Positions 5,663-21,740 of a stretch of 21,764 nt of DNA are shown here, in pieces (the stretch's first letter is position 1; every line of letters begins with the position of its first letter). This stretch comes from a virus. Location of the stretch: positions 1 to 21,764 of the IMG/VR virus record IMGVR_UViG_3300009024_000082; one strand, given 5' to 3'. The position numbers were made by a program, and so were the translations under genes. Below the pieces are notes generated by a model, which was not told where the DNA came from, ran no database searches, and saw nothing but the letters and a program-made list of their open reading frames with translations.

Positions 5663-5947
5663 TTATCCTTCTAAAAATTTCTTATTGTTTTTTGCAGACC
5701 TGATTATGTTCGCAGCCTTTTTGTCGACTAACTTTAAATCCAAGCCTGCTGATTCAGAAAGAACTTGTTGAAGACCTTCAAGCCTAGCCATTACAGCAGC
5801 ATGAATAGGGCCTTCCATGTCCCTCTTACTTTCTAAGTTCTCTAACCTTTCCTGAAGGTCTTCGAAGTGATACTTTACTCCGCTTGAGGTGCGACCGAAC
5901 TTTTCGATACACTTCTTTTCAAATAGCTCATCTTCAAGCTTTATCAA
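5663..5947 (-). CDS. Small coiled-coil protein of unknown function (94 aa)
   Basis: I do not recognise this protein. Residues about 25-45 (FEDLQERLENLESKRD) have heptad spacing suited to a short coiled coil. The C-terminus is basic (SAKNNKKFLEG). The start is TTG at 5945-5947 in a TTGA overlap with the polymerase stop codon. No ATG lies early enough to replace it, so translation probably depends on coupling to the polymerase gene. A role as a polymerase or nuclease accessory protein is suggested only by its place between the polymerase C-half and the Cas4-like nuclease. Confidence 0.6.
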   Translation of the reverse strand: MIKLEDELFEKKCIEKFGRTSSGVKYHFEDLQERLENLESKRDMEGPIHAAVMARLEGLQQVLSESAGLDLKLVDKKAANIIRSAKNNKKFLEG

Positions 5948-8448
5948 CTGCTTCTGCTCACATATATATCAGCATGCCTACCTAAGGATCTCAACATTGG
6001 AATATCTATACGCTTACTATTAAACTTCTTTATCCTAAAGACGGCATCTCCTATGTCCATGCATAGGGTCATCTTAAATCCACTATCTTCTTCTACCACA
6101 TATTCTGAGATAGCATTAAAGATAGTCTTAATTCTTACAGTACCAGGTGGCTCCTTGAAGTGAATATCTATTGACCTCATCTCCTTTTCAGCTTCTATCT
6201 GGTCTGAAACATTGTCTACCTCAGAAGTAATATCTCTAATTGCATCAGCAAAGTAGGACTTCTTACCTCCTTTAGACTCAGTACGTGTCATTATAAGTAC
6301 GTAGTTACCTTCACTAATACAATGTTTATACAAGGCATACGTAGTAGGAAACACAACAAAGCTGGTAGCTCCACCAACACTGTCTGCAACATCTATAAAA
6401 CACATCTCTTTCTTTTCTGCTTTGGTTACAGTTTTCTTGATCTTGTTTATTTGGCCAAGAATATATCCCTGTCCATCTCTATGTTCAAAGTCTCCTATAT
6501 TATAAAAGTCTTCTTCCACTATAGTAGCAACAATATCAAATGGGTTACCTGATATATGTATACCCATAAGAGTCTTTTCCATATCTAATATTCTTAGCAT
6601 AGGATACTCAGCTTGATTGGGATCACTAAACAATCTTTCCTCAGCTTCAAGCAACTCTTTTTTAACTGCCTTAATCTCCTTAGGATCTTCAGTAGCACCG
6701 AGTAACTTAATATAGGTAGCAAGGAAGTTCTCGAAGTTCTTAATCATAGATGATCTTTTATAACCAAAACAATCACAAGCACCACACTGAATGAGTGCCT
6801 CTATGATCTTTTTATTAATACCCTTAGCATGATAGGACTTAATTAAGAAGTCTCCAAAACTACTAGAGGGTGCTACAGATAAGATCTTTGTGATAGCTCT
6901 ACCACCAACACCTTTGATCTGATTAAAACCAAAAAGAATGTCACCATTCTTAGCAACAGTAAAGTCTTTAGAAGACCTATTGATGTCAGGTGGTAATACA
7001 GATATACCAATTCTCTTAGCGTCTTCTATATAAACAGACTGTCCCTCAATCGTATCCTCAAAAGCAATGACTGCAGCTAGGAATTCAGAAGGATAGTATG
7101 CCTTCAACCACGCGGTCTGATAACCAATCTCCGCATAGCATATAGCATGTGACTTATTAAAACAATACCTAGCAAACTCTTCCATCTCATCAAATAAGGC
7201 TGAGATCTTAAGTCTGTCTTGACCATTGGCAACAGCACCATCAACAAACCTTTCCTTCTGTGCCATCAGAAGGGCTCTATCTTTCTTACCAACAGCTTTT
7301 CTAAGAACATCAGCCTCTATGTCACTAAAGCCACACATGTCCTTAGAGAGGATCATAAGCTGTTCTTGGAATACTAGAAGACCATAGGTCTCTTTAAAGA
7401 TGTAATCATATTCAGGAATAGGGAACGTGGATGCCTGCTTACCATTCTTACGCATAACATAATCAACGTGAGCATTCATACCCATAGGGCCAGGTCTATA
7501 CAGAGATATAACAGCTGCCATCTCAGTAAGATTAGACGGCTTTGCAGCCGCAGCAAAATCTCTTAGGCCTTGTGAGCCTTCAATCTGAAAGACGCCATAG
7601 CTATTACCACTACCTATTATGTCGTAAGCTTCAGGATCATCAGGAAGTATATCGGCAACACTGATATCTTTTCCTTGAACTTTCTTGATAAGTTCAAATG
7701 TTTTACTAATGGCAGAAAGGTTCTTAAGTCCGAGTATGTCATACTTAATAAGTCCAATCTTCTCAAGGGTTTCTCCATCGAACTGAGTAACTGCGCCATC
7801 TTTCGAGGAGAATAATGGGATGGTATCAGTAAGTGGGTCAACGGATATGCACATCCCGCAGGCGTGAATACCAACGGTCTTGACTGTTCCTTCAAGATTT
7901 CTTGCATACTCTATAATCTCCCTAACTTGTTTGTCGGTGTCATATAACTTCTTAAGGTCAGAACTCATCTCAAGTGCCTGAGTAAAGTCCTTTAAATCAG
8001 GATCATCAGGTATCATCTTAGATATTTCATTAGACCTAAGGAAGTCTAGATCATATAGTCTAGCTATATCTTTCCATAAACCTTTCGGCTTAGGAAACAT
8101 AAAGGTACCGATAGATGCAACTCTATCTTTACCATACTTATCAACAAGATGCTGCTTAACTTCATCTCTTCTATCCTTTTCGAAGTCTAGATCTATATCC
8201 GGAAAGGAACCGCCAACAGTTGTTATCCTACCAGTAGGTTCATCATCAGTTATGCCTAGAAGGAATGCTATATTAGAATTGTTTGGATTCTTCTTAGCCT
8301 TTATTCCACTATCGAGCATAGCTAATAGATATTCATCGGTATCATGGAGCTCTAAATGATTAAGCTCAAAATTAATATCTCTTTCATGTAGTGCATACCA
8401 AGGGTTATCCTTAGCAGCCTCTACTTCTTGTCTCAATGTTCTACTCAT
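5944..8448 (-). CDS. dnaE: DNA polymerase III alpha subunit, C-terminal part (catalytic palm, fingers, OB)
   Basis: This 834-aa protein is the larger part of a split C-family replicative polymerase. FPDIDLDF (82-89) holds catalytic D84 and D86, and KYDILGLKNL holds the third aspartate, D237. Further matches are YRPGPMG, GLLVFQEQ and the fingers segment NKSHAICYAEIGYQTAWLKA. An OB-fold region with GYILGQINKIKK lies near residue 670. The PHP domain and the GRGS part of the palm are missing and are encoded at 12822-14141. Residues about 56-75 (NNSNIAFLLGITDDEPTG) look like a decayed copy of the GSLVAYxxxITxxDP segment that is intact in the other half. The first 50 residues have no DnaE counterpart I know and may be a docking segment. 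The start ATG overlaps the stop codon of the preceding gene. The two proteins presumably assemble into one polymerase. Confidence 0.93.
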   Translation of the reverse strand: MSRTLRQEVEAAKDNPWYALHERDINFELNHLELHDTDEYLLAMLDSGIKAKKNPNNSNIAFLLGITDDEPTGRITTVGGSFPDIDLDFEKDRRDEVKQHLVDKYGKDRVASIGTFMFPKPKGLWKDIARLYDLDFLRSNEISKMIPDDPDLKDFTQALEMSSDLKKLYDTDKQVREIIEYARNLEGTVKTVGIHACGMCISVDPLTDTIPLFSSKDGAVTQFDGETLEKIGLIKYDILGLKNLSAISKTFELIKKVQGKDISVADILPDDPEAYDIIGSGNSYGVFQIEGSQGLRDFAAAAKPSNLTEMAAVISLYRPGPMGMNAHVDYVMRKNGKQASTFPIPEYDYIFKETYGLLVFQEQLMILSKDMCGFSDIEADVLRKAVGKKDRALLMAQKERFVDGAVANGQDRLKISALFDEMEEFARYCFNKSHAICYAEIGYQTAWLKAYYPSEFLAAVIAFEDTIEGQSVYIEDAKRIGISVLPPDINRSSKDFTVAKNGDILFGFNQIKGVGGRAITKILSVAPSSSFGDFLIKSYHAKGINKKIIEALIQCGACDCFGYKRSSMIKNFENFLATYIKLLGATEDPKEIKAVKKELLEAEERLFSDPNQAEYPMLRILDMEKTLMGIHISGNPFDIVATIVEEDFYNIGDFEHRDGQGYILGQINKIKKTVTKAEKKEMCFIDVADSVGGATSFVVFPTTYALYKHCISEGNYVLIMTRTESKGGKKSYFADAIRDITSEVDNVSDQIEAEKEMRSIDIHFKEPPGTVRIKTIFNAISEYVVEEDSGFKMTLCMDIGDAVFRIKKFNSKRIDIPMLRSLGRHADIYVSRSS

Positions 8449-8942
8449 TAAATATCTACCTCATAGCAGTCGAAATTATCTTTTTCTGGATAAGTAACTA
8501 TGTCTTTAATAAGTCTGATAGAGGCAAACCTTCCATACAAAATATAAACCCCTGCCATAATCTTTAAGCTATCAACACTATCATACATCTTCTTAATCAT
8601 TCTACACGGTAGTCCATCAGCAGTACGCATCATAAGACTATCAAGACGATTATTCTTGCCATAATTTATAGCAGCCACTGCAGCCACCTGTATTATCGGT
8701 AGCATATTCATTCTACAAAACCTAGGGTGAGGCCAGTAAGTAGTACCGACCTCCTTAAGCTTTGTATATATGTGCAATAAGAAGAAACCTATATCCCTAT
8801 TGTCTTTATGGACTATGTATAAATCGTAATCATTAAGTTGTTGTATAGAGTCAAAATTATTCCTATAAGAATTAAAAGCAAATGCTTCACCTAGCCACTG
8901 CTTGTCAACCTTATTAATATTAACTTTACGAACAAATATCAT
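8448..8942 (-). CDS. Possible GNAT-like acyltransferase (second of two in the radical SAM island)
   Basis: This 164-aa protein is not securely recognised. Its order of elements suggests a GNAT fold: an opening strand FVRKV, a helix, strands YDLYIVHK and IGFFLLHIY, a long helix (about 85-97, IIQVAAVAAINYG), a strand SLMMRTA and a helix LPCRMIKKMYDS. The acetyl-CoA loop Q/RxxGxG/A is not clear, so the call stays tentative. GNAT enzymes transfer acyl groups from CoA to amines. It directly follows the SPASM radical SAM gene in an ATGA overlap, just as the other GNAT-like gene follows the first radical SAM gene. That repeated pairing suggests both act in one modification pathway. Confidence 0.4.
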   Translation of the reverse strand: MIFVRKVNINKVDKQWLGEAFAFNSYRNNFDSIQQLNDYDLYIVHKDNRDIGFFLLHIYTKLKEVGTTYWPHPRFCRMNMLPIIQVAAVAAINYGKNNRLDSLMMRTADGLPCRMIKKMYDSVDSLKIMAGVYILYGRFASIRLIKDIVTYPEKDNFDCYEVDI

Positions 8943-10408
8943 ATACTGCTCACGGTATCGTTAGGAAACTTCCTATTATGAAGAATCTCTAGTGTTAATT
9001 TAAGTGTACTCACGTCCTTAATTAGCTGAACCATCTCAACATTAGATCCTTGAACGTCATGACATCCACAGTTATCTTCTTGAGGCTTATAAGGTTCATT
9101 CATCAGTAGTGCCTTAACAAGCATAAGCATATCTTCAACCTTACACTCTATTTCAGATATAGCTTCAGCCTTAGTAAGACCTATCTTAGATGCCATCTGT
9201 CTATTAATTCTAGTAAGGCTAGTCATCTCCAAAGTATTCTCATACAGGTCAGCTAAGTCTTCACACCATAGAGATGAACAAAAATGAGCATCATGATGTA
9301 ATAGATTCTTAACAGAACACTGAAAACAATACTTCTTCTCACAACTACCACACTTAGGGTCGTAGTTAGGATTAAGCTTATAGATATTACCACGCTCTAT
9401 GTTGACAGCTTCAGTTATGAAGTTGCCCATAATATCTGCATCCATTTCTGCGTGAGCAGTAAAGTAACATGAGTAGATGCCACCATCTGGATTAACAGCT
9501 AGCATAGTATGTCCAGCACCACAGTTATGATTCTTTTTATTAACACCTTCCATACACTCTATCTCAACATTAGATGTCTCAATAGCATAGGCACACACAT
9601 CATTTATGACATCAGTAACCTCTTGGTATAGCTCAGTAGTCCATGGAGCATTGGCTTCAGTAGTAACCGGATGAATGATTATATTCTCTGGCCCATAGTC
9701 GACCATCTCATATAGGTCTTCCTTAAGGATGTCCCAATATTGAGGCATAACACTAACTCTGAATGATGAACACTTGAAGATCCTATAGTAGTTATCCTTC
9801 ATGTTCTGAATATTCTTTCTTATCAGAGTCATTAAATTATTATTCTTATCACCAGTAGTATGCCTAGACTTAACTCTATCAAAGCCATCTAGGCTAAGTA
9901 GAAATGTTATCTCTCTACCACTAGTATTTTCTTCTAACCATTTAAGCTTCTTATCATCCAGCAAAACTATGTTGGTACTAATATTAAACTCTATGAGTCC
10001 AGGATACTTATCTAATCCATATCTCATAAAATCTTTTATGGTATCCCATTCAAGTAGTGGCTCACCACCAAAGAAAGATAATACCACTGGCTTAGCATCT
10101 GCTGGTCTCTTCTGATGCTTGATCCAAGTAATTAGTTGATCAAAGTTTGTATAATTCCAAGGGACATCATCAGGTAGATCTTTATCTTCTACGCAGTAGT
10201 CACATCTGAAGTTACATTTCTTAGTCATAAGCAGGTTAACCATAACCAACTCATCGAACTTACCTTTAAACTCTTCTCTAGTACCTCTAGAGCCAAGGCC
10301 GGCACCTATTGGCCCAACCTCTCCCTTGAGGTGGTTAAGTCCTTCATCGAGGTTTAAATTAAGGGCTGGAATCATTTGAGGATTGACTGTCTTCATTCCA
10401 GTATCCAT
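8939..10408 (-). CDS. Radical SAM protein with SPASM domain
   Basis: From this start the product is 489 aa. I chose ATG at 10406-10408 because GGGAG lies four bases upstream; a TTG at 10442-10444 would add 12 residues. KKCNFRCDYC carries the CX3CX2C motif (C65, C69, C72) that binds the radical SAM 4Fe-4S cluster, and SFFGGEPL (111-118) is the SAM-binding GGE motif. C296-X12-G-X4-C314 followed by C353, C356, C361, C364 and later cysteines match the SPASM layout for auxiliary clusters. SPASM enzymes modify peptides or proteins, for example by thioether bonds, formylglycine formation or other crosslinks. About 50 residues precede the barrel, including IPALNLNL, which resembles IPAVNLSG at the N-terminus of the other radical SAM protein. 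The target may be the 76-aa protein at 12592-12822 (inference). Confidence 0.9.
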   Translation of the reverse strand: MDTGMKTVNPQMIPALNLNLDEGLNHLKGEVGPIGAGLGSRGTREEFKGKFDELVMVNLLMTKKCNFRCDYCVEDKDLPDDVPWNYTNFDQLITWIKHQKRPADAKPVVLSFFGGEPLLEWDTIKDFMRYGLDKYPGLIEFNISTNIVLLDDKKLKWLEENTSGREITFLLSLDGFDRVKSRHTTGDKNNNLMTLIRKNIQNMKDNYYRIFKCSSFRVSVMPQYWDILKEDLYEMVDYGPENIIIHPVTTEANAPWTTELYQEVTDVINDVCAYAIETSNVEIECMEGVNKKNHNCGAGHTMLAVNPDGGIYSCYFTAHAEMDADIMGNFITEAVNIERGNIYKLNPNYDPKCGSCEKKYCFQCSVKNLLHHDAHFCSSLWCEDLADLYENTLEMTSLTRINRQMASKIGLTKAEAISEIECKVEDMLMLVKALLMNEPYKPQEDNCGCHDVQGSNVEMVQLIKDVSTLKLTLEILHNRKFPNDTVSSI

Positions 10409-10430
10409 GTAGCTCCCGGGTTCGTATTGC

Positions 10431-10994
10431 TTAACAGTATTCAAATCTATTCTCTCTTACTTTTCCAAATTTATATAATTTATCAGGATTGATTATACGA
10501 TCATAGATCACAACCCAATCATCCTTATCTTCTTTAACCTTAATCGGCTCAAAGCCATACTCAATAAACTTACCATAAACAAAAGGTAGACTGGCCTCAA
10601 AGAAGCAATGAGTTCCACCATAGATATTAAACCACATACTTAAAGTAAATGTAGGTGCCACAGTAGACCTCTTTCCCTCTAGATATAATTCAGAGCCCCA
10701 GCACTTGCTAACGTACCCATTAGTATTATCATAAGTAGGTGTACTAATGTTATGTATAATAGAGCATGCATTAAGCGTACCATCTGAATCAAATATCACA
10801 TGGGAGTTATTGTATAGGCCTGTATTATAATTTTCTTCTAGTCGTTTATAAGTTGGTGGGTTTTGATACCCATGCTCTTTATAGAATTTCTTTAGGTAAG
10901 GATGAAAGTCTTTTAAATCAGACTCTCTAACCTTCCTATAGAACCACAGTTCATCACGAGCGACAAAGGAACCTTTCTCTATTAGGTTGTGCAT
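10431..10994 (-). CDS. Possible GNAT-like acyltransferase (first of two in the island)
   Basis: I place the start at ATG 10992-10994, with AGGA about ten bases upstream; the open frame extends to a TTG at 11054 deep inside the radical SAM gene. The 187-aa product begins after about 14 residues with LWFYRKVRESDLKDF, a common GNAT opening strand and helix. It ends with a helix-strand pair (LPFVYGKFIEYGFEPIKVK, then DWVVIYDR) of the kind that closes GNAT domains. The central part is divergent and the acetyl-CoA loop is not clear. Cysteines are scattered, and the protein ends in EYC. It overlaps the radical SAM gene before it by 41 bases and ends 22 bases before the next radical SAM gene. An unknown fold is the alternative. 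Confidence 0.45.
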   Translation of the reverse strand: MHNLIEKGSFVARDELWFYRKVRESDLKDFHPYLKKFYKEHGYQNPPTYKRLEENYNTGLYNNSHVIFDSDGTLNACSIIHNISTPTYDNTNGYVSKCWGSELYLEGKRSTVAPTFTLSMWFNIYGGTHCFFEASLPFVYGKFIEYGFEPIKVKEDKDDWVVIYDRIINPDKLYKFGKVRENRFEYC

Positions 10995-11964
10995 AGTACA
11001 TAGTCCTATTAATATTCTCTGCCTTTGCAATAGTAGCAAAGTTCTCCGTATCAAGAGGTACTGTTATACCAGCCTTATTGGCCATTGCTTCTAATATAAT
11101 GCATGCAGCATCTGTTGTTTCATTTAATTCATTTAAGATATCATCGTCTAGATTGTAATAAGCTGCTACGTGACAAGCACTTGAGAAACCATTTACATCT
11201 ACAGCTAATTGCTTTTTACTTCTGAAGTTACAGCAATTCATTTCATGTTGTTTAGTTGAAAACACTGCTTCATTAAGGCCTATGTCGTACTGACCTCCGC
11301 TTTTAATTGAAGCAAGATTAGCTTCCATGCACCAATAAAGAAACTTATTCCTAATATCTTCTGTCATAACATAGTTATTGTCACCATCAAACATTACAAT
11401 ATTAATATCAAACTTAGTGGCACCAGATATCTCAAAGATATCTTCAACCCTTTGTATAATAGAATAGTCAGGAGCCTTTCTTATGTCTAGAGTAGTACTA
11501 AATATTAACTTCTCTGAGCCTACCTTAGAGGCAAGCCACTTAATGTTATTAATAACCTTAGTGTACTCTTCAAATGATGACCACCTAGTAGGATCATTCT
11601 CATAGTTACCATCAAGACTTATATAGATTACATTAAATTGTTTCCAATATTTTTCATCTAGCTTATCTATATAAGTACCATTAGTTATAACCTCATAGTA
11701 CTTATCAGGATAAGAATCCATAACCTGCGCTATTAGTCTCCTATTAAGCAATGGCTCACCACCAAAGAACTTAATAATAGTAGGATCAGTTTCCTCTATG
11801 TGTCTAAACGCATCAGCTACATCCATTTTCTGTTCAGGAAAGTGCTTTTCATAGCAATAGTCACACTTCATGTTGCATCCCTTAGTGACCACAAGGGTAA
11901 GCTTTTCAACCTTACTAAAGCCACTTAGGTTAACAGCAGGTATACTATTTTTCTTTCCACTCAT
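10954..11964 (-). CDS. Radical SAM protein with partial SPASM (Twitch-like) end
   Basis: This 336-aa enzyme has the radical SAM signature GCNMKCDYC (C30, C34, C37) and KFFGGEPLL with the GGE motif at 68-70. Further strands follow the barrel pattern (EVITNGTYID, VIYISLDG). C245-X13-G259-X4-C264 matches the first half of the SPASM signature, but the CX2CX5CX3C half is absent. The auxiliary cluster, if any, is therefore a reduced Twitch-like site. The N-terminus NSIPAVNLSGF resembles the second radical SAM protein. Known relatives install crosslinks or other changes on peptides and proteins using a 5'-deoxyadenosyl radical. It overlaps the unknown helical gene upstream by 20 bases and the GNAT-like gene downstream by 41 bases. 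Confidence 0.9.
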   Translation of the reverse strand: MSGKKNSIPAVNLSGFSKVEKLTLVVTKGCNMKCDYCYEKHFPEQKMDVADAFRHIEETDPTIIKFFGGEPLLNRRLIAQVMDSYPDKYYEVITNGTYIDKLDEKYWKQFNVIYISLDGNYENDPTRWSSFEEYTKVINNIKWLASKVGSEKLIFSTTLDIRKAPDYSIIQRVEDIFEISGATKFDINIVMFDGDNNYVMTEDIRNKFLYWCMEANLASIKSGGQYDIGLNEAVFSTKQHEMNCCNFRSKKQLAVDVNGFSSACHVAAYYNLDDDILNELNETTDAACIILEAMANKAGITVPLDTENFATIAKAENINRTMYYAQPNRERFLCRS

Positions 11965-12601
11965 CAGCTAAACCTTTAATATTATTGAGATATGAATCAT
12001 TCATAGCAACGATTTCTCTAAACTTTAATTCAGAATTTAAGAAGTAAGAGTACAATATATCAGACAAATGATACTCAGAAGAGTATCTAGACCATACACT
12101 ATAGGACTCATCCTTAATCTTATTCGTACTTGCACTAAACTTGGTAGCAGTATCTATAGCAGCACTCTTCTCAAAGAAGACTAATGCTTTCTTAACACCA
12201 TCAAAGTAATCAGAGAAGCCTTCACCTTGCATAAGCTTTTCATATACACCTTTGCTATCACCTCTAACAAACGGTATGTAAGAGAAGCCTATGGTCTCTA
12301 GTACTATTGATACTATCGGAGCATCTAAGCCTTCAATACTATCAAGTAAGGTTGTCCTACATGTATTCATCATCTCTGCATCAACCTTAGACCTAGAAAA
12401 GAAAACTATCTCTCTATAGTGAGACATAGCCTGACATAGATTAAAGATCTGAGAAGGAAGTACCTTCTTACTCTTAGATATTGTAATCAATATACCTTTA
12501 ATAATCTTTGTAGCAGATTCAACACTCTCTATTCCAAGATTCATAGCTTCTTCTCTAACTTTTAAAAAGCCATCGAGTATCTTCTTGTCTTCTATCCGCA
12601 T
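11945..12601 (-). CDS. Helical protein of unknown function in the radical SAM island (218 aa)
   Basis: I do not recognise this protein. It reads as mostly helical, with several amphipathic segments (for example 34-60 and 135-160) and no signal peptide or cysteine cluster. Tyrosine and serine are frequent in the C-terminal third (SVWSRYSSEYHLSDILYSYF). Its ATG overlaps the last codons of the 76-aa Gly-rich protein, whose final TGC-GGA-TAG is read in another frame here, so the two genes are translationally coupled. It ends inside the start of the first radical SAM gene. This position between candidate substrate and enzyme would suit a carrier, recognition or structural partner, but nothing in the sequence proves it. 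Confidence 0.7.
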   Translation of the reverse strand: MRIEDKKILDGFLKVREEAMNLGIESVESATKIIKGILITISKSKKVLPSQIFNLCQAMSHYREIVFFSRSKVDAEMMNTCRTTLLDSIEGLDAPIVSIVLETIGFSYIPFVRGDSKGVYEKLMQGEGFSDYFDGVKKALVFFEKSAAIDTATKFSASTNKIKDESYSVWSRYSSEYHLSDILYSYFLNSELKFREIVAMNDSYLNNIKGLADEWKEK

Positions 12602-12822
12602 GTAGTAGTTCCTCCGCCACCCGATGAGTCAGTATACTCATGAGTATGACCTATAAGTAGTTCGATTTGATCTCTAAGTTCATTAATATCCTTAGCTTTT
12701 ATCTTATCTTTAGTAGGCAAGATTCTTTTACCCTGAAAAGGGCCACCTGTTGTAGCTCCATTAATCCAAAAATTAATTCGTGCTGTAGCCTCATTTGGAT
12801 CTGACGGGAAAGTAGTTGGCAT
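12592..12822 (-). CDS. 76-aa protein with HxH motif and Gly-rich tail ending in TTTCG; candidate radical SAM substrate
   Basis: This short protein has three parts: an N-terminal region with FPSDPNEATARINFW, a helix KDINELRDQIELLIG (44-58), and a C-terminus GHTHEYTDSS-GGGG-TTTCG. Helix-GHTHxYTD segments occur near the ends of phage tail and fibre proteins, where HxH motifs can bind metal, so it may be or mimic a virion tip protein. It is nevertheless encoded far from any tail gene. It sits directly before a radical SAM/GNAT cluster and ends in a flexible Gly run with a penultimate cysteine (C75). That layout resembles precursor peptides modified at the C-terminus by SPASM enzymes. Substrate status is inference. 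It starts in a TAATG overlap with the polymerase N-half and has AAGGAA upstream. Confidence 0.75.
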   Translation of the reverse strand: MPTTFPSDPNEATARINFWINGATTGGPFQGKRILPTKDKIKAKDINELRDQIELLIGHTHEYTDSSGGGGTTTCG

Positions 12823-14141
12823 TATTTGGTTTCCTTATATTTATCTATTGAAAATTCTTCAAATTCTATTTGCGGTCTTTTCGCTCTTCCACGATTTAAA
12901 AATCTTTCGAATAATAAATCATGCTCAATAGGATCTATACCAGTTATCTTCATACAATAAGCTACTAAAGATCCAGCTGCAGAGCCGCGTCCGCCGCCAA
13001 CCATTATACCATTATCTTTAGCCCATTGTGTATACTCAGCTACTACATGAAAGTAATCAGAGAACTCCATCTTACGAATAACTTCTAGCTCATGCCTAAG
13101 TCTCTCATGGTACTTTGATATTAGTGCAACATCAGTAATCTTACGATCAGAAAGATACTTAGAGAGATATTCATAAGACTCTGCAGCTAAAGCCTCATCA
13201 GGGTTCTCTACAATCTCAGGTATGATCTTAAGACCATCAATAAAGTCAACATTACACATGTCAGCTATATCATTAGTAGCATTCATAGCCTGTTCAAACA
13301 TGGGTAGGAAATCTTCACCATGATACTGTAGATAATGTCGCTTAAGATCCTCATAGGACTTAATGTAGTACTGTTCTTTCTCATAGTACATACCAGAGTC
13401 ATCCTGATCTGTATCAGCATTGACCTTGATCTTACTTATGTTTCCAGTATTAATACTTACTAATGTTCTATGATAGTCCCACTGATCCTTCTCAACATAG
13501 TGAGAGTCAGCAGTTATGACAAGCTTAATGTCATGCTTCTTAGCCATAGAGATCAAGAAGTTATTAGCTTCAGTCTGAAGATATACACCGTCTTCACTTA
13601 ACCCAGTATGGGTAAGCTCTAAGTAATACCTGTCTCCAAGTATTTGTTTCATCTCAAGTATATGGTCTTCAGCTTCTTCAGATCTATTCTCTAAGAATAA
13701 CTGAGATGGTCTACCACCAAGGCATGCACTAGTAACAATTAAACCTTCGCCCCATTGAGCTAACCTAGTTGTATCTATTCTAGGCTTATAATATTTACCT
13801 TCTAGCCACGACCAACTTGTTAGGCGCATAAGATTCTTATGACCCTCCTTGTTCATAGCCACGACTATTAGATGATAGTAAGGTTTTTCACCATCAACTT
13901 TTTCTTTTACTGTAGCACTACCAGGAGCCATATACATTTCATTGCCGAAGATTGGTTTAATGCCATGCTTCTTACAAGATTTATTTAACTCATACCAACC
14001 AAAGCAATTACCATGATCAGTTAAAGCCACTCCTTTCATACCCAGCATCTTACATCTTTCAACCATCTTATCTATCTTAGAAAAACCATCTAATACAGAA
14101 TAGACACTATGCTGATGTAAACCAGTGTACGTTTGAGACAA
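12822..14141 (-). CDS. dnaE: DNA polymerase III alpha subunit, N-terminal part (PHP domain and start of palm)
   Basis: This 439-aa protein is the N-terminal part of a split C-family polymerase. The PHP domain appears complete: H9 and H11 (LHQHS), D42 and H43 (LTDHG), E68, H90, C140 (TSACLGG), D212 and H214 (ADSHYV). An intact set suggests working 3'-5' proofreading inside the alpha subunit. The palm begins with GGGRGSAAGSLVAY (382-395), part of the dNTP-binding site, and continues to LLFERFLN. The protein then ends in RPQIEFEEF (422-430), where a whole DnaE would have PDxDxDF: both catalytic aspartates are replaced, and the real motif is in the 5944-8448 gene. The start codon is TTG at 14139-14141, seven bases after AAGGAT. 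It needs its partner for DNA synthesis. Confidence 0.93.
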   Translation of the reverse strand: MSQTYTGLHQHSVYSVLDGFSKIDKMVERCKMLGMKGVALTDHGNCFGWYELNKSCKKHGIKPIFGNEMYMAPGSATVKEKVDGEKPYYHLIVVAMNKEGHKNLMRLTSWSWLEGKYYKPRIDTTRLAQWGEGLIVTSACLGGRPSQLFLENRSEEAEDHILEMKQILGDRYYLELTHTGLSEDGVYLQTEANNFLISMAKKHDIKLVITADSHYVEKDQWDYHRTLVSINTGNISKIKVNADTDQDDSGMYYEKEQYYIKSYEDLKRHYLQYHGEDFLPMFEQAMNATNDIADMCNVDFIDGLKIIPEIVENPDEALAAESYEYLSKYLSDRKITDVALISKYHERLRHELEVIRKMEFSDYFHVVAEYTQWAKDNGIMVGGGRGSAAGSLVAYCMKITGIDPIEHDLLFERFLNRGRAKRPQIEFEEFSIDKYKETK

Positions 14142-20189: not shown

Positions 20190-21740
20190 TTAAAATGGTA
20201 ATCCTTCAGCAAAGTCTGCAAAAATATCTACAGCCTCTGCCATATTATTATTAGGTTGTGCCCTATCAGTTCTATTTACGTAGTCTGGATAGAAGTCATA
20301 AGTTAAGCCACGTCTTATCTGACCACCAGGCTTAAACATTACTATGCTAGGAGTGTTCCTTAGCCTACTATGCCTAAATGTCTCACGTCTTTTCTGCTTA
20401 GCCGCATGGGGCGAGGGAAGCTTATGGGTAAGTATGCAACTATTATCCATACTATTTCTTATAAATTGGTACTGATCCCTGTTTATGGATTTAACCCACT
20501 CAAGAATTCCACGCTCTCTTGGGTCAAGATTGTGAAGCCTCTTACCTTCAAGCATCTTCTTTATCTCAAGCTTTTTATTAGAACCTATAGATAACTTAGG
20601 CGTGTCACCAGACGTATCTAAAATGATGCCGGCAATCTTCTTCTTATCACGAGGCCCCATAATGTGAGTCTTATCATAGTTGAGATAGAAACTAGAACCA
20701 TTAACTATTCTTTCCAGCTCCAATACATAATCCATATTCAATACAAAACTACCATCCTCATTGTAACCTTCCATAGAGGAGATACAGATATCATCTGCAT
20801 ACCTCGTATACTTTATGTTACCACTAAGATATTTCTTAACAGAAAGATCCATAGGAGCAAATATAATATTAGATACAACAGGTGAATAGTTAGCACCAGT
20901 AGGTAGTAAACCATTATGAGTATAGTAGTTCATAATATTTATGAAACTAAGATTGATAATGTTGAATAGATTTCGAAGCACTTGAAAGTGGTTCGGATTA
21001 GTAAAAGTTTCGGGGGCAAAGTCCATACCAGTACGTATCTTAAAGCTTGCGATAAGTGACTTAAGATATAGATCATTGGTAATGATAGTAGACAATGATA
21101 TGCTGTCATAGAACTTACTTATGTCTACACTAATAGCAGACTTACATCCTAGATGTTCTCTGGCATGCTCAACATAAGACTTACCTCTAACAAACCCAGT
21201 TACATTATTCGCTAATGAATCAGGTAGGCCTGGATCAATATAAAAGTTATAATAAACTTTATACATATCATCAGCAAAAGATATAAGTTCATCTTTAATA
21301 GTTTCTCTTAGCTCTACAGGAAACTTTCTATTTATAACAGATATTCTTCTATCCTTAACTTTAGCATGCCTAAAGATACATGTGTTTGATAGGTTGCCAT
21401 AAGGAGCAGCAAACATATTCATGTCTTCCGCAAAAGACATTAGCCAATCATCATTACATAAGGTAGCATCGAAGCTATTGCTACAGAGTCTATTAATATC
21501 TCCATAATCACAATGATGTGAAACTCTTTCCTTGACCCTATCATGAGCCTCTGCACCTAGCTCTCTGTAGATATCAATATTATCTAGCATAAATGTATTA
21601 ACATTTTCAGGAAGCTTAGACTCTTCAGCAAATGCAATAGCATGAGCAGTAGACTCCATCTTCTTAAGGCGTCCGGTATAGACGCCCAGTATACTGTTAT
21701 AGTCTTTAACTAAAGACATAAAACTACGTTTACCAATCAT
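20190..21740 (-). CDS. Reverse transcriptase, retron/group II-like
   Basis: This 516-aa protein has the RT motifs in order. RISVINRK precedes VTGFVRGKSYVEHA (180-193), as in retron and group II enzymes. SVDISKFYDSI carries the first catalytic aspartate (D206). LLPTGANYSPVVSNIIF (278-294) is the primer/template-grip motif, and YTRYADDICIS carries YADD (314-317). IAGIILDTSGDTPKLS and the thumb-like ILEWVKSINRDQYQFI follow. About 120 residues precede the core, and an extended C-terminus has the basic run AAKQKRRETFRHSRLR (446-461). There is no maturase or endonuclease domain and no obvious retron effector. The ATG follows AAGGA at five bases. The region upstream, where a retron RNA would lie, is cut off by the window end. 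Abi/UG-type phage-defence RTs and diversity-generating RTs are alternatives. Confidence 0.88.
   Translation of the reverse strand: MIGKRSFMSLVKDYNSILGVYTGRLKKMESTAHAIAFAEESKLPENVNTFMLDNIDIYRELGAEAHDRVKERVSHHCDYGDINRLCSNSFDATLCNDDWLMSFAEDMNMFAAPYGNLSNTCIFRHAKVKDRRISVINRKFPVELRETIKDELISFADDMYKVYYNFYIDPGLPDSLANNVTGFVRGKSYVEHAREHLGCKSAISVDISKFYDSISLSTIITNDLYLKSLIASFKIRTGMDFAPETFTNPNHFQVLRNLFNIINLSFINIMNYYTHNGLLPTGANYSPVVSNIIFAPMDLSVKKYLSGNIKYTRYADDICISSMEGYNEDGSFVLNMDYVLELERIVNGSSFYLNYDKTHIMGPRDKKKIAGIILDTSGDTPKLSIGSNKKLEIKKMLEGKRLHNLDPRERGILEWVKSINRDQYQFIRNSMDNSCILTHKLPSPHAAKQKRRETFRHSRLRNTPSIVMFKPGGQIRRGLTYDFYPDYVNRTDRAQPNNNMAEAVDIFADFAEGLPF

What the first reader, a model, noticed from the sequence alone, without database searches (positions are those of the whole stretch)
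8448..12822. Radical SAM / GNAT-like island with a Gly-rich, Cys-ending small protein: candidate phage peptide-modification system
Six overlapping genes form a unit: a 76-aa protein ending GGGGTTTCG, a helical unknown, then radical SAM, GNAT-like, radical SAM-SPASM, GNAT-like. SPASM enzymes typically modify peptides or small proteins, and the first gene looks like a substrate with a flexible tail and a penultimate cysteine. The alternation enzyme-acyltransferase, enzyme-acyltransferase suggests two successive modification steps. If true, this is a phage-encoded RiPP-like or structural-protein maturation system. The HTH metal motif hints that the product could be a modified virion tip or a secreted effector.
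Basis: partly seen in the sequence, partly recalled or inferred. Interest (0 to 1): 0.87.

Follow-up and report, generated by a model that had tools for sequence, protein, structure and literature searches.

The report
Phage radical-SAM cassette with tail-type peptide
A phage carries, wedged between the two halves of its split DNA polymerase gene, two radical-SAM enzymes and a tiny tail-fibre-type protein; uncultured phages elsewhere carry much clearer versions of the same pairing, which suggests that some phages chemically modify the tips of their own tail proteins.

Summary
The island is real: six overlapping minus-strand genes at 8448-12822, exactly between the halves of a split viral DnaE. 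Two are radical SAM (rSAM) enzymes, the second with a full SPASM-type cysteine set. The 'GNAT-like' labels are not supported by any search. The small protein carries a helix-HTHxYxD module. The same module occurs in uncultured phages beside tail-fibre genes, where a 65-93 aa protein ending like HTHIFYDDYSTACNCNCNCNC(T/S)RG precedes an rSAM array: a motif-only search gave 20 contigs, all 20 with rSAM genes, against 1 of 11 phage records chosen otherwise. The window's rSAM2 groups with that family's first rSAM (97/94 support, but a long branch). Salmonella phage SPN3US and others repeat the theme. For this window it stays inference: one Cys only, overlapping the next gene's ribosome site and start codon; no orthologues of the small protein; and the nearest DnaE relative lacks the rSAM and small-protein genes at the same site. 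Chemistry and target are untested. No description was found in the open papers searched.

The parts
12592..12822 (-). 76-aa protein: virion-type helix-HTHxYxD module (residues 40-65) plus SSGGGGTTTCG tail; proposed substrate
   Evidence: Module profile built without the window: 25.9 bits, only good hit among window ORFs, best of 2000 shuffles 8.3 bits; HTH-Cys profile 10.7 vs 5.7 bits; phmmer to L022 tail-region protein E 4e-4, 0 of 100 shuffles reach 0.01
11945..12601 (-). 218-aa protein of unknown family; start overlaps the end of the 76-aa gene, ribosome site inside its Gly codons
10954..11964 (-). rSAM1, 336 aa, CxxxCxxC and a shortened SPASM-like end
   Evidence: PF04055 2.4e-13; cysteine map; joins the window rSAM2/rSAM-A group in the tree, 95/84, long branch
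10431..10994 (-).
   Evidence: no support for GNAT
8939..10444 (-). rSAM2, up to 501 aa (TTG start), SPASM-type; proposed maturase
   Evidence: PF04055 1.5e-11; PapB model 107 bits, below its cut-off; nearest solved sequence 5wgg; sister of HTH-Cys rSAM-A clade 97/94
8448..8942 (-). 164-aa protein, GNAT not shown; a relative sits alone between the DnaE halves of L010, so it may belong to the site and not to the rSAM module
   Evidence: E 8e-10 to L010 815-1408
12822..14141 (-). N-terminal half of split DnaE (flank, not part of the module)
5944..8448 (-). C-terminal half of split DnaE (flank, not part of the module)

Best explanation
The island is a phage-encoded protein-maturation cassette. 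The 76-aa protein is a stand-alone virion-type module (a helix ending in HTHxYxD, of the kind found in tail-fibre regions) with a flexible Gly/Thr/Cys tail. rSAM1 and rSAM2 (SPASM-type) use S-adenosylmethionine radicals to modify that tail, most likely by making a thioether or similar bond at the single Cys or by altering neighbouring Gly or Thr residues. The 218-aa and 187-aa proteins assist, for example in recognition or a second step. The product would be mounted on, or act as, a small fitting of the phage tail. Shown here: gene order, rSAM identity, kinship of the small protein's module with tail-region proteins, the recurring pairing of such proteins with rSAM arrays in phages, and the tree position of rSAM2. 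Inferred: that the 76-aa protein is the substrate, the bond type, the role of the helpers, and the place in the virion.
For: Six overlapping genes. The small protein matches a module family found in phage tail regions. 20 of 20 viral contigs found only by the HTHx[YF]xDDYxxxCxC ending carry rSAM genes, against 1 of 11 control records. rSAM2 is sister of that family's first rSAM, 97/94. Cys-rich C-tails are enriched next to phage rSAM genes, 18/375 vs 1/310. A tail-fibre protein in L048 itself ends in such a tail beside an rSAM gene. SPN3US and CR5 have tandem rSAMs after two Cys/Gly proteins. The nearest enzymes are peptide maturases.
Against: Only one Cys in the tail, and it overlaps the start codon of the next gene; the Gly codons hold that gene's ribosome site. 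No orthologue of the 76-, 187- or 218-aa proteins, so conservation of the tail is untestable. rSAM2 sits on a long branch. The island is not in the tail gene cluster. No RRE, peptidase or exporter was seen. L010 lacks the module.
Confidence: 0.5

Rival explanations
1. The rSAMs modify a protein, but not the 76-aa one: their target is another tail protein of the phage or a host protein. The 76-aa protein is an ordinary small structural module, and its Gly/Cys end is largely a by-product of translational coupling with the next gene.
For: GGAGG ribosome site inside the Gly codons and Cys codon overlapping the next ATG; Cys-free HTH modules are common in the related tail regions; tail-type genes lie about 12 kb away.
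Against: Direct overlap of the small gene with the rSAM genes, far from the tail genes; in the related family the protein next to the rSAM array is the one with the Cys tail. The two 5' Gly codons are not needed for the ribosome site.
Confidence: 0.25
2. The rSAMs act on a small molecule, nucleotide or sugar (for example base or surface-polysaccharide chemistry), and the 76-aa protein is there by accident.
For: Phages do carry rSAMs such as QueE-type enzymes; weak viperin similarity of the core.
Against: Best models and nearest solved sequence are SPASM peptide maturases; kinship with a family tied 20 of 20 to a tail-type small protein.
Confidence: 0.1
3. The six genes are not one functional unit: a homing-type or site-specific insertion between the DnaE halves collects unrelated genes.
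For: DnaE is split at the same place in L010 with only a relative of the 164-aa gene between; L010 also has HNH-type and GIY-YIG-type insertions in its replication genes (sequence read).
Against: Tight overlaps, and pairing of this module type with this rSAM clade in independent phages.
Confidence: 0.15

Closest known systems
Phage HTH-Cys small protein plus rSAM array
   Same: Small protein with the same helix-HTHx(Y/F)xD module directly upstream of rSAM genes; rSAM2 sister of its rSAM-A
   Different: Window tail is SSGGGGTTTCG with one Cys instead of four or more; two rSAMs, no rSAM-B or rSAM-C; lies between DnaE halves, not beside tail-fibre genes
CXXX-repeat peptide modification (TIGR04114 target, TIGR04115 rSAM), seen in phage contig L011 and distantly in SPN3US
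   Same: rSAM/SPASM next to a tail-region protein with a Gly/Cys end
   Different: Window protein has no repeats; rSAM2 scores far below TIGR04115 cut-off (53.7 of 350 bits)
PapB-type ranthipeptide maturase (NF047865) and 5wgg (recalled as the SCIFF maturase CteB)
   Same: Closest curated model and closest solved sequence; rSAM-SPASM layout
   Different: 107.5 of 340 bits; no known precursor motif; no RRE domain detected
Split phage DnaE (PHROGs 7513, 12219, 11165)
   Same: Two polymerase halves encoded separately
   Different: Here the halves flank a six-gene island and share an overlapping, complementarily decayed segment

Membership tests
rSAM/SPASM peptide maturase (RiPP type) | Radical SAM domain with CxxxCxxC | tested here: met
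   PF04055 2.4e-13 and 1.5e-11; C77/C81/C84 in rSAM2
rSAM/SPASM peptide maturase (RiPP type) | SPASM domain | tested here: inconclusive
   Cysteine pattern complete in rSAM2 but Pfam SPASM below cut-off; rSAM1 shortened
rSAM/SPASM peptide maturase (RiPP type) | Adjacent ribosomal precursor with a modifiable core | tested here: inconclusive
   76-aa protein adjacent, one Cys; no orthologues to show a conserved core
rSAM/SPASM peptide maturase (RiPP type) | RRE, leader peptidase or exporter | tested here: not met
   No such family found in the island proteins
rSAM/SPASM peptide maturase (RiPP type) | Detected modification of the peptide | not testable with these tools
   Needs mass spectrometry
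   25.9 bits vs best shuffle 8.3 of 2000
   Tail is SSGGGGTTTCG
   Sister of the clade at 97/94, not inside it; long branch
   Only two rSAMs, between DnaE halves
CXXX-repeat system (TIGR04114/TIGR04115) | Cys repeat target and rSAM above 350 bits | tested here: not met
   No repeat; rSAM2 53.7 bits, rSAM1 29.7 bits
PapB ranthipeptide maturase (NF047865) | Score above 340 bits | tested here: not met
   107.5 bits
GNAT acyltransferase (187-aa and 164-aa proteins) | Acetyl-CoA fold recognisable by sequence or structure | tested here: not met
   No significant hit; the model of the 187-aa protein is too poor to decide by structure

The most novel reading that the evidence does not exclude
Many unrelated phages, including cultured jumbo phages such as SPN3US, mature the ends of their own tail proteins with radical-SAM enzymes that modify Cys/Gly-rich C-terminal tails; the window carries a stripped-down, divergent version acting on a one-cysteine tail.
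Probability: 0.4. Interest if true: 0.88.

Novelty: new variant of a known kind. Interest (0 to 1): 0.72.

Why it matters
rSAM peptide maturation is known from bacterial natural products. If phages use it on virion proteins, it would be a new way to build rigid or protease-proof tail parts, would give a role to orphan rSAM genes in jumbo and environmental phages, and would uncover overlooked small virion genes: the Cys/Gly ORFs of SPN3US are unannotated and one is hidden under a gene called in another frame. It can be tested directly by mass spectrometry on cultured phages.

Tried and rejected
Single-protein scans of viral contigs with rSAM2 and the 76-aa protein found no relatives. INPHARED search with rSAM2 hit short contigs from human faeces; the three I read carry SCIFF-type rSAMs among bacterial housekeeping genes and are probably not phage. 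A pattern for HTHxYTD..GGGG found nothing. AlphaFold models of the 187-aa and 218-aa proteins had pLDDT about 40, so no fold search was run. GNAT tests failed. A control pattern for Cys-free HTH modules gave one contig already in the set, so a small control of 11 other phage records was used instead. The 28-aa module query against INPHARED was too short to be useful. Viperin, QueE and CXXX-repeat membership were considered and rejected on scores. Nine literature searches found no description of phage rSAM enzymes acting on tail proteins; the library lacks most subscription papers.

Full report
What is there. The window is a 21.8-kb virus record. On the minus strand, 8448-12822 holds six ORFs that overlap end to start: a 76-aa protein, a 218-aa protein, rSAM1 (336 aa), a 187-aa protein (the 207-aa ORF starts at an unlikely TTG; ATG at 10994), rSAM2 (up to 501 aa) and a 164-aa protein. 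Both rSAMs match PF04055. rSAM2 has a full SPASM-type set of cysteines, rSAM1 a shortened one. The two 'GNAT-like' genes and the 218-aa gene match nothing, and AlphaFold models of the 187- and 218-aa proteins are too poor to use.

Where it sits. The island lies exactly between the N-half and C-half of a DnaE-type polymerase. Both halves carry a copy of the same palm segment, decayed in complementary ways: the N-half keeps GRGSAAGS but has PQIEFEEF where PDIDIDF belongs; the C-half keeps PDIDLDF but has lost the GRGS part. L010, the nearest relative found by the polymerase (49%), has the same split and a similar decay. Between its halves L010 has only a relative of the 164-aa protein (E 8e-10), with no rSAM and no small protein. 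So the split is older than the rSAM module (or the module was lost in L010), and the 164-aa gene may belong to the site rather than to the module. A sibling contig, 99.95% identical over 5.6 kb, shows that tail-type genes (a tail assembly protein, phrog_9600, 6e-38, and a 1409-aa SPRY/RCC1 protein) lie roughly 12 kb from the island on the same strand.

Other phages with the pairing. tblastn with rSAM1 led to jumbo phages. Salmonella phage SPN3US has tandem rSAMs gp102/gp103 preceded by two unannotated ORFs of 130 and 134 aa rich in Cys, Gly and Ser; its annotated gp100 runs in a different frame over one of them. Cronobacter phage CR5 has the same. A gut phage contig, L011, has a 193-aa CXXX-repeat protein directly after a tail-fibre-like gene, then two small proteins and an rSAM scoring 300 bits with TIGR04115. 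A scan of viral contigs with an rSAM alignment gave 48 loci. Among them, ORFs with at least five Cys in the last 40 residues are enriched within 3 kb of an rSAM gene: 18/375 against 1/310 further away, p=1.5e-4. Some loci are near-copies of each other, so the number of independent cases is smaller. In L048 the Cys/Gly tail (phrog_6085, the SPN3US family) is the C-terminus of a tail-fibre protein (phrog_2631, 2.7e-32).

The closest family. Two of the best matches to rSAM2, L022 and L023, lie just downstream of 65-68 aa proteins ending HTHVFYDDYTTACDCNCDCNC... and HTHQYFDDYNTVCECQCQCQ.... A DNA pattern made from that ending alone found 20 viral contigs. All 20 carry rSAM genes, mostly three or four; of 11 phage records picked for other reasons, one has one (Fisher 2.5e-7, or 2e-6 counting 15 distinct small proteins). 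The order where seen: tail-fibre genes, a protein with two Cys-free HTH modules, the HTH-Cys protein, usually one or two unknown proteins, then rSAM-A (about 510-600 aa), rSAM-B (about 360 aa) and rSAM-C (about 430-490 aa); L023 and L163 also carry a DUF3050 haem-oxygenase-like gene. No cultured phage in INPHARED has the small protein, and rSAM-A finds only distant rSAM hits there.

The link to the window. A profile of the Cys-free modules from these contigs, built without the window, finds the 76-aa protein as the only good hit among window ORFs (25.9 bits; best of 2000 shuffles 8.3). The profile of the HTH-Cys proteins also ranks it first (10.7 bits against 5.7 for the best shuffle). Maximum-likelihood trees place rSAM2 as sister of the rSAM-A clade (98/92 for the group that also holds rSAM1; 97/94 with 19 bacterial rSAMs added and rSAM1 left out). 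The branch is long and the tree program warns that such joins may be false. rSAM1 joins the same group in the first tree (95/84).

Reading. The simplest account is that the window carries a divergent, reduced version of a phage system in which SPASM-type rSAMs modify the Cys-bearing tail of a small tail-type protein. Shown: gene order, module kinship and enzyme kinship. Inferred: the substrate, the bond and the place in the virion. Caveats specific to this window: one Cys only; the GGAGG ribosome site of the next gene lies inside the Gly codons and the Cys codon overlaps its ATG, so the tail composition could partly reflect coupling; no orthologues to test conservation; location away from the tail genes.

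Compared with what is known. It works like rSAM RiPP systems but was not shown to belong to one: NCBIfam scores are far below the PapB and CXXX-repeat cut-offs, and no RRE, peptidase or exporter was found. The nearest solved sequence is 5wgg (recalled as the SCIFF maturase CteB). Nine literature searches of the open library found no account of phage rSAM acting on tail proteins; this does not cover subscription journals.

Noticed in passing
window 5944-8448 and 12822-14141; L010 1-852 and 1338-2702: Split DnaE whose halves share an overlapping segment of roughly 100 residues with complementary decay: GRGSAAGS kept in the N-half, PDIDLDF kept in the C-half. The same split exists in L010.
   Followed up: partly
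window 20190-21740 (-): 516-aa reverse transcriptase with retron/DRT-type matches in the replication region of a phage; role unknown.
   Followed up: no
L008 5085-5477 and 5488-5892 (SPN3US); L016 3142-3534 and 3504-3947 (CR5): Unannotated Cys/Gly/Ser-rich ORFs before tandem rSAM genes; annotated gp100 of SPN3US overlaps one in another frame.
   Followed up: partly
L048 4955-6310: 451-aa protein: tail-fibre N-terminal part with a Cys/Gly-repeat C-terminus, beside a 686-aa rSAM gene in a 284-kb phage contig.
   Followed up: partly
L023 6797-7564; L163 7348-8094: DUF3050 haem-oxygenase-like iron enzymes beside the HTH-Cys rSAM arrays; a possible extra oxidative step.
   Followed up: no
L045, L049, L052, L057, L058, L060, L065, L068: Viral contigs with four to nine rSAM-like genes, often on both strands, without an obvious Cys-tail protein.
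   Followed up: no
L010 2764-3441 and 7849-8556: Homing-endonuclease-like ORFs (a LAGLIDADG/HNH-type and a GIY-YIG-type reading by eye) interrupt the DnaE C-half and the primase-helicase.
   Followed up: no
L156 1-12091: Sibling contig of the same virus from another dataset extends the genome by 12 kb: DNA ligase, tail assembly protein, 1409-aa SPRY/RCC1 protein, ribonucleotide reductase, thioredoxin.
   Followed up: partly
L003, L004, L005 (MT836133, MT837768, MT836984): Records labelled 'Bacteriophage sp.' that hold bacterial housekeeping genes and SCIFF-type rSAMs; probably not phage.
   Followed up: no
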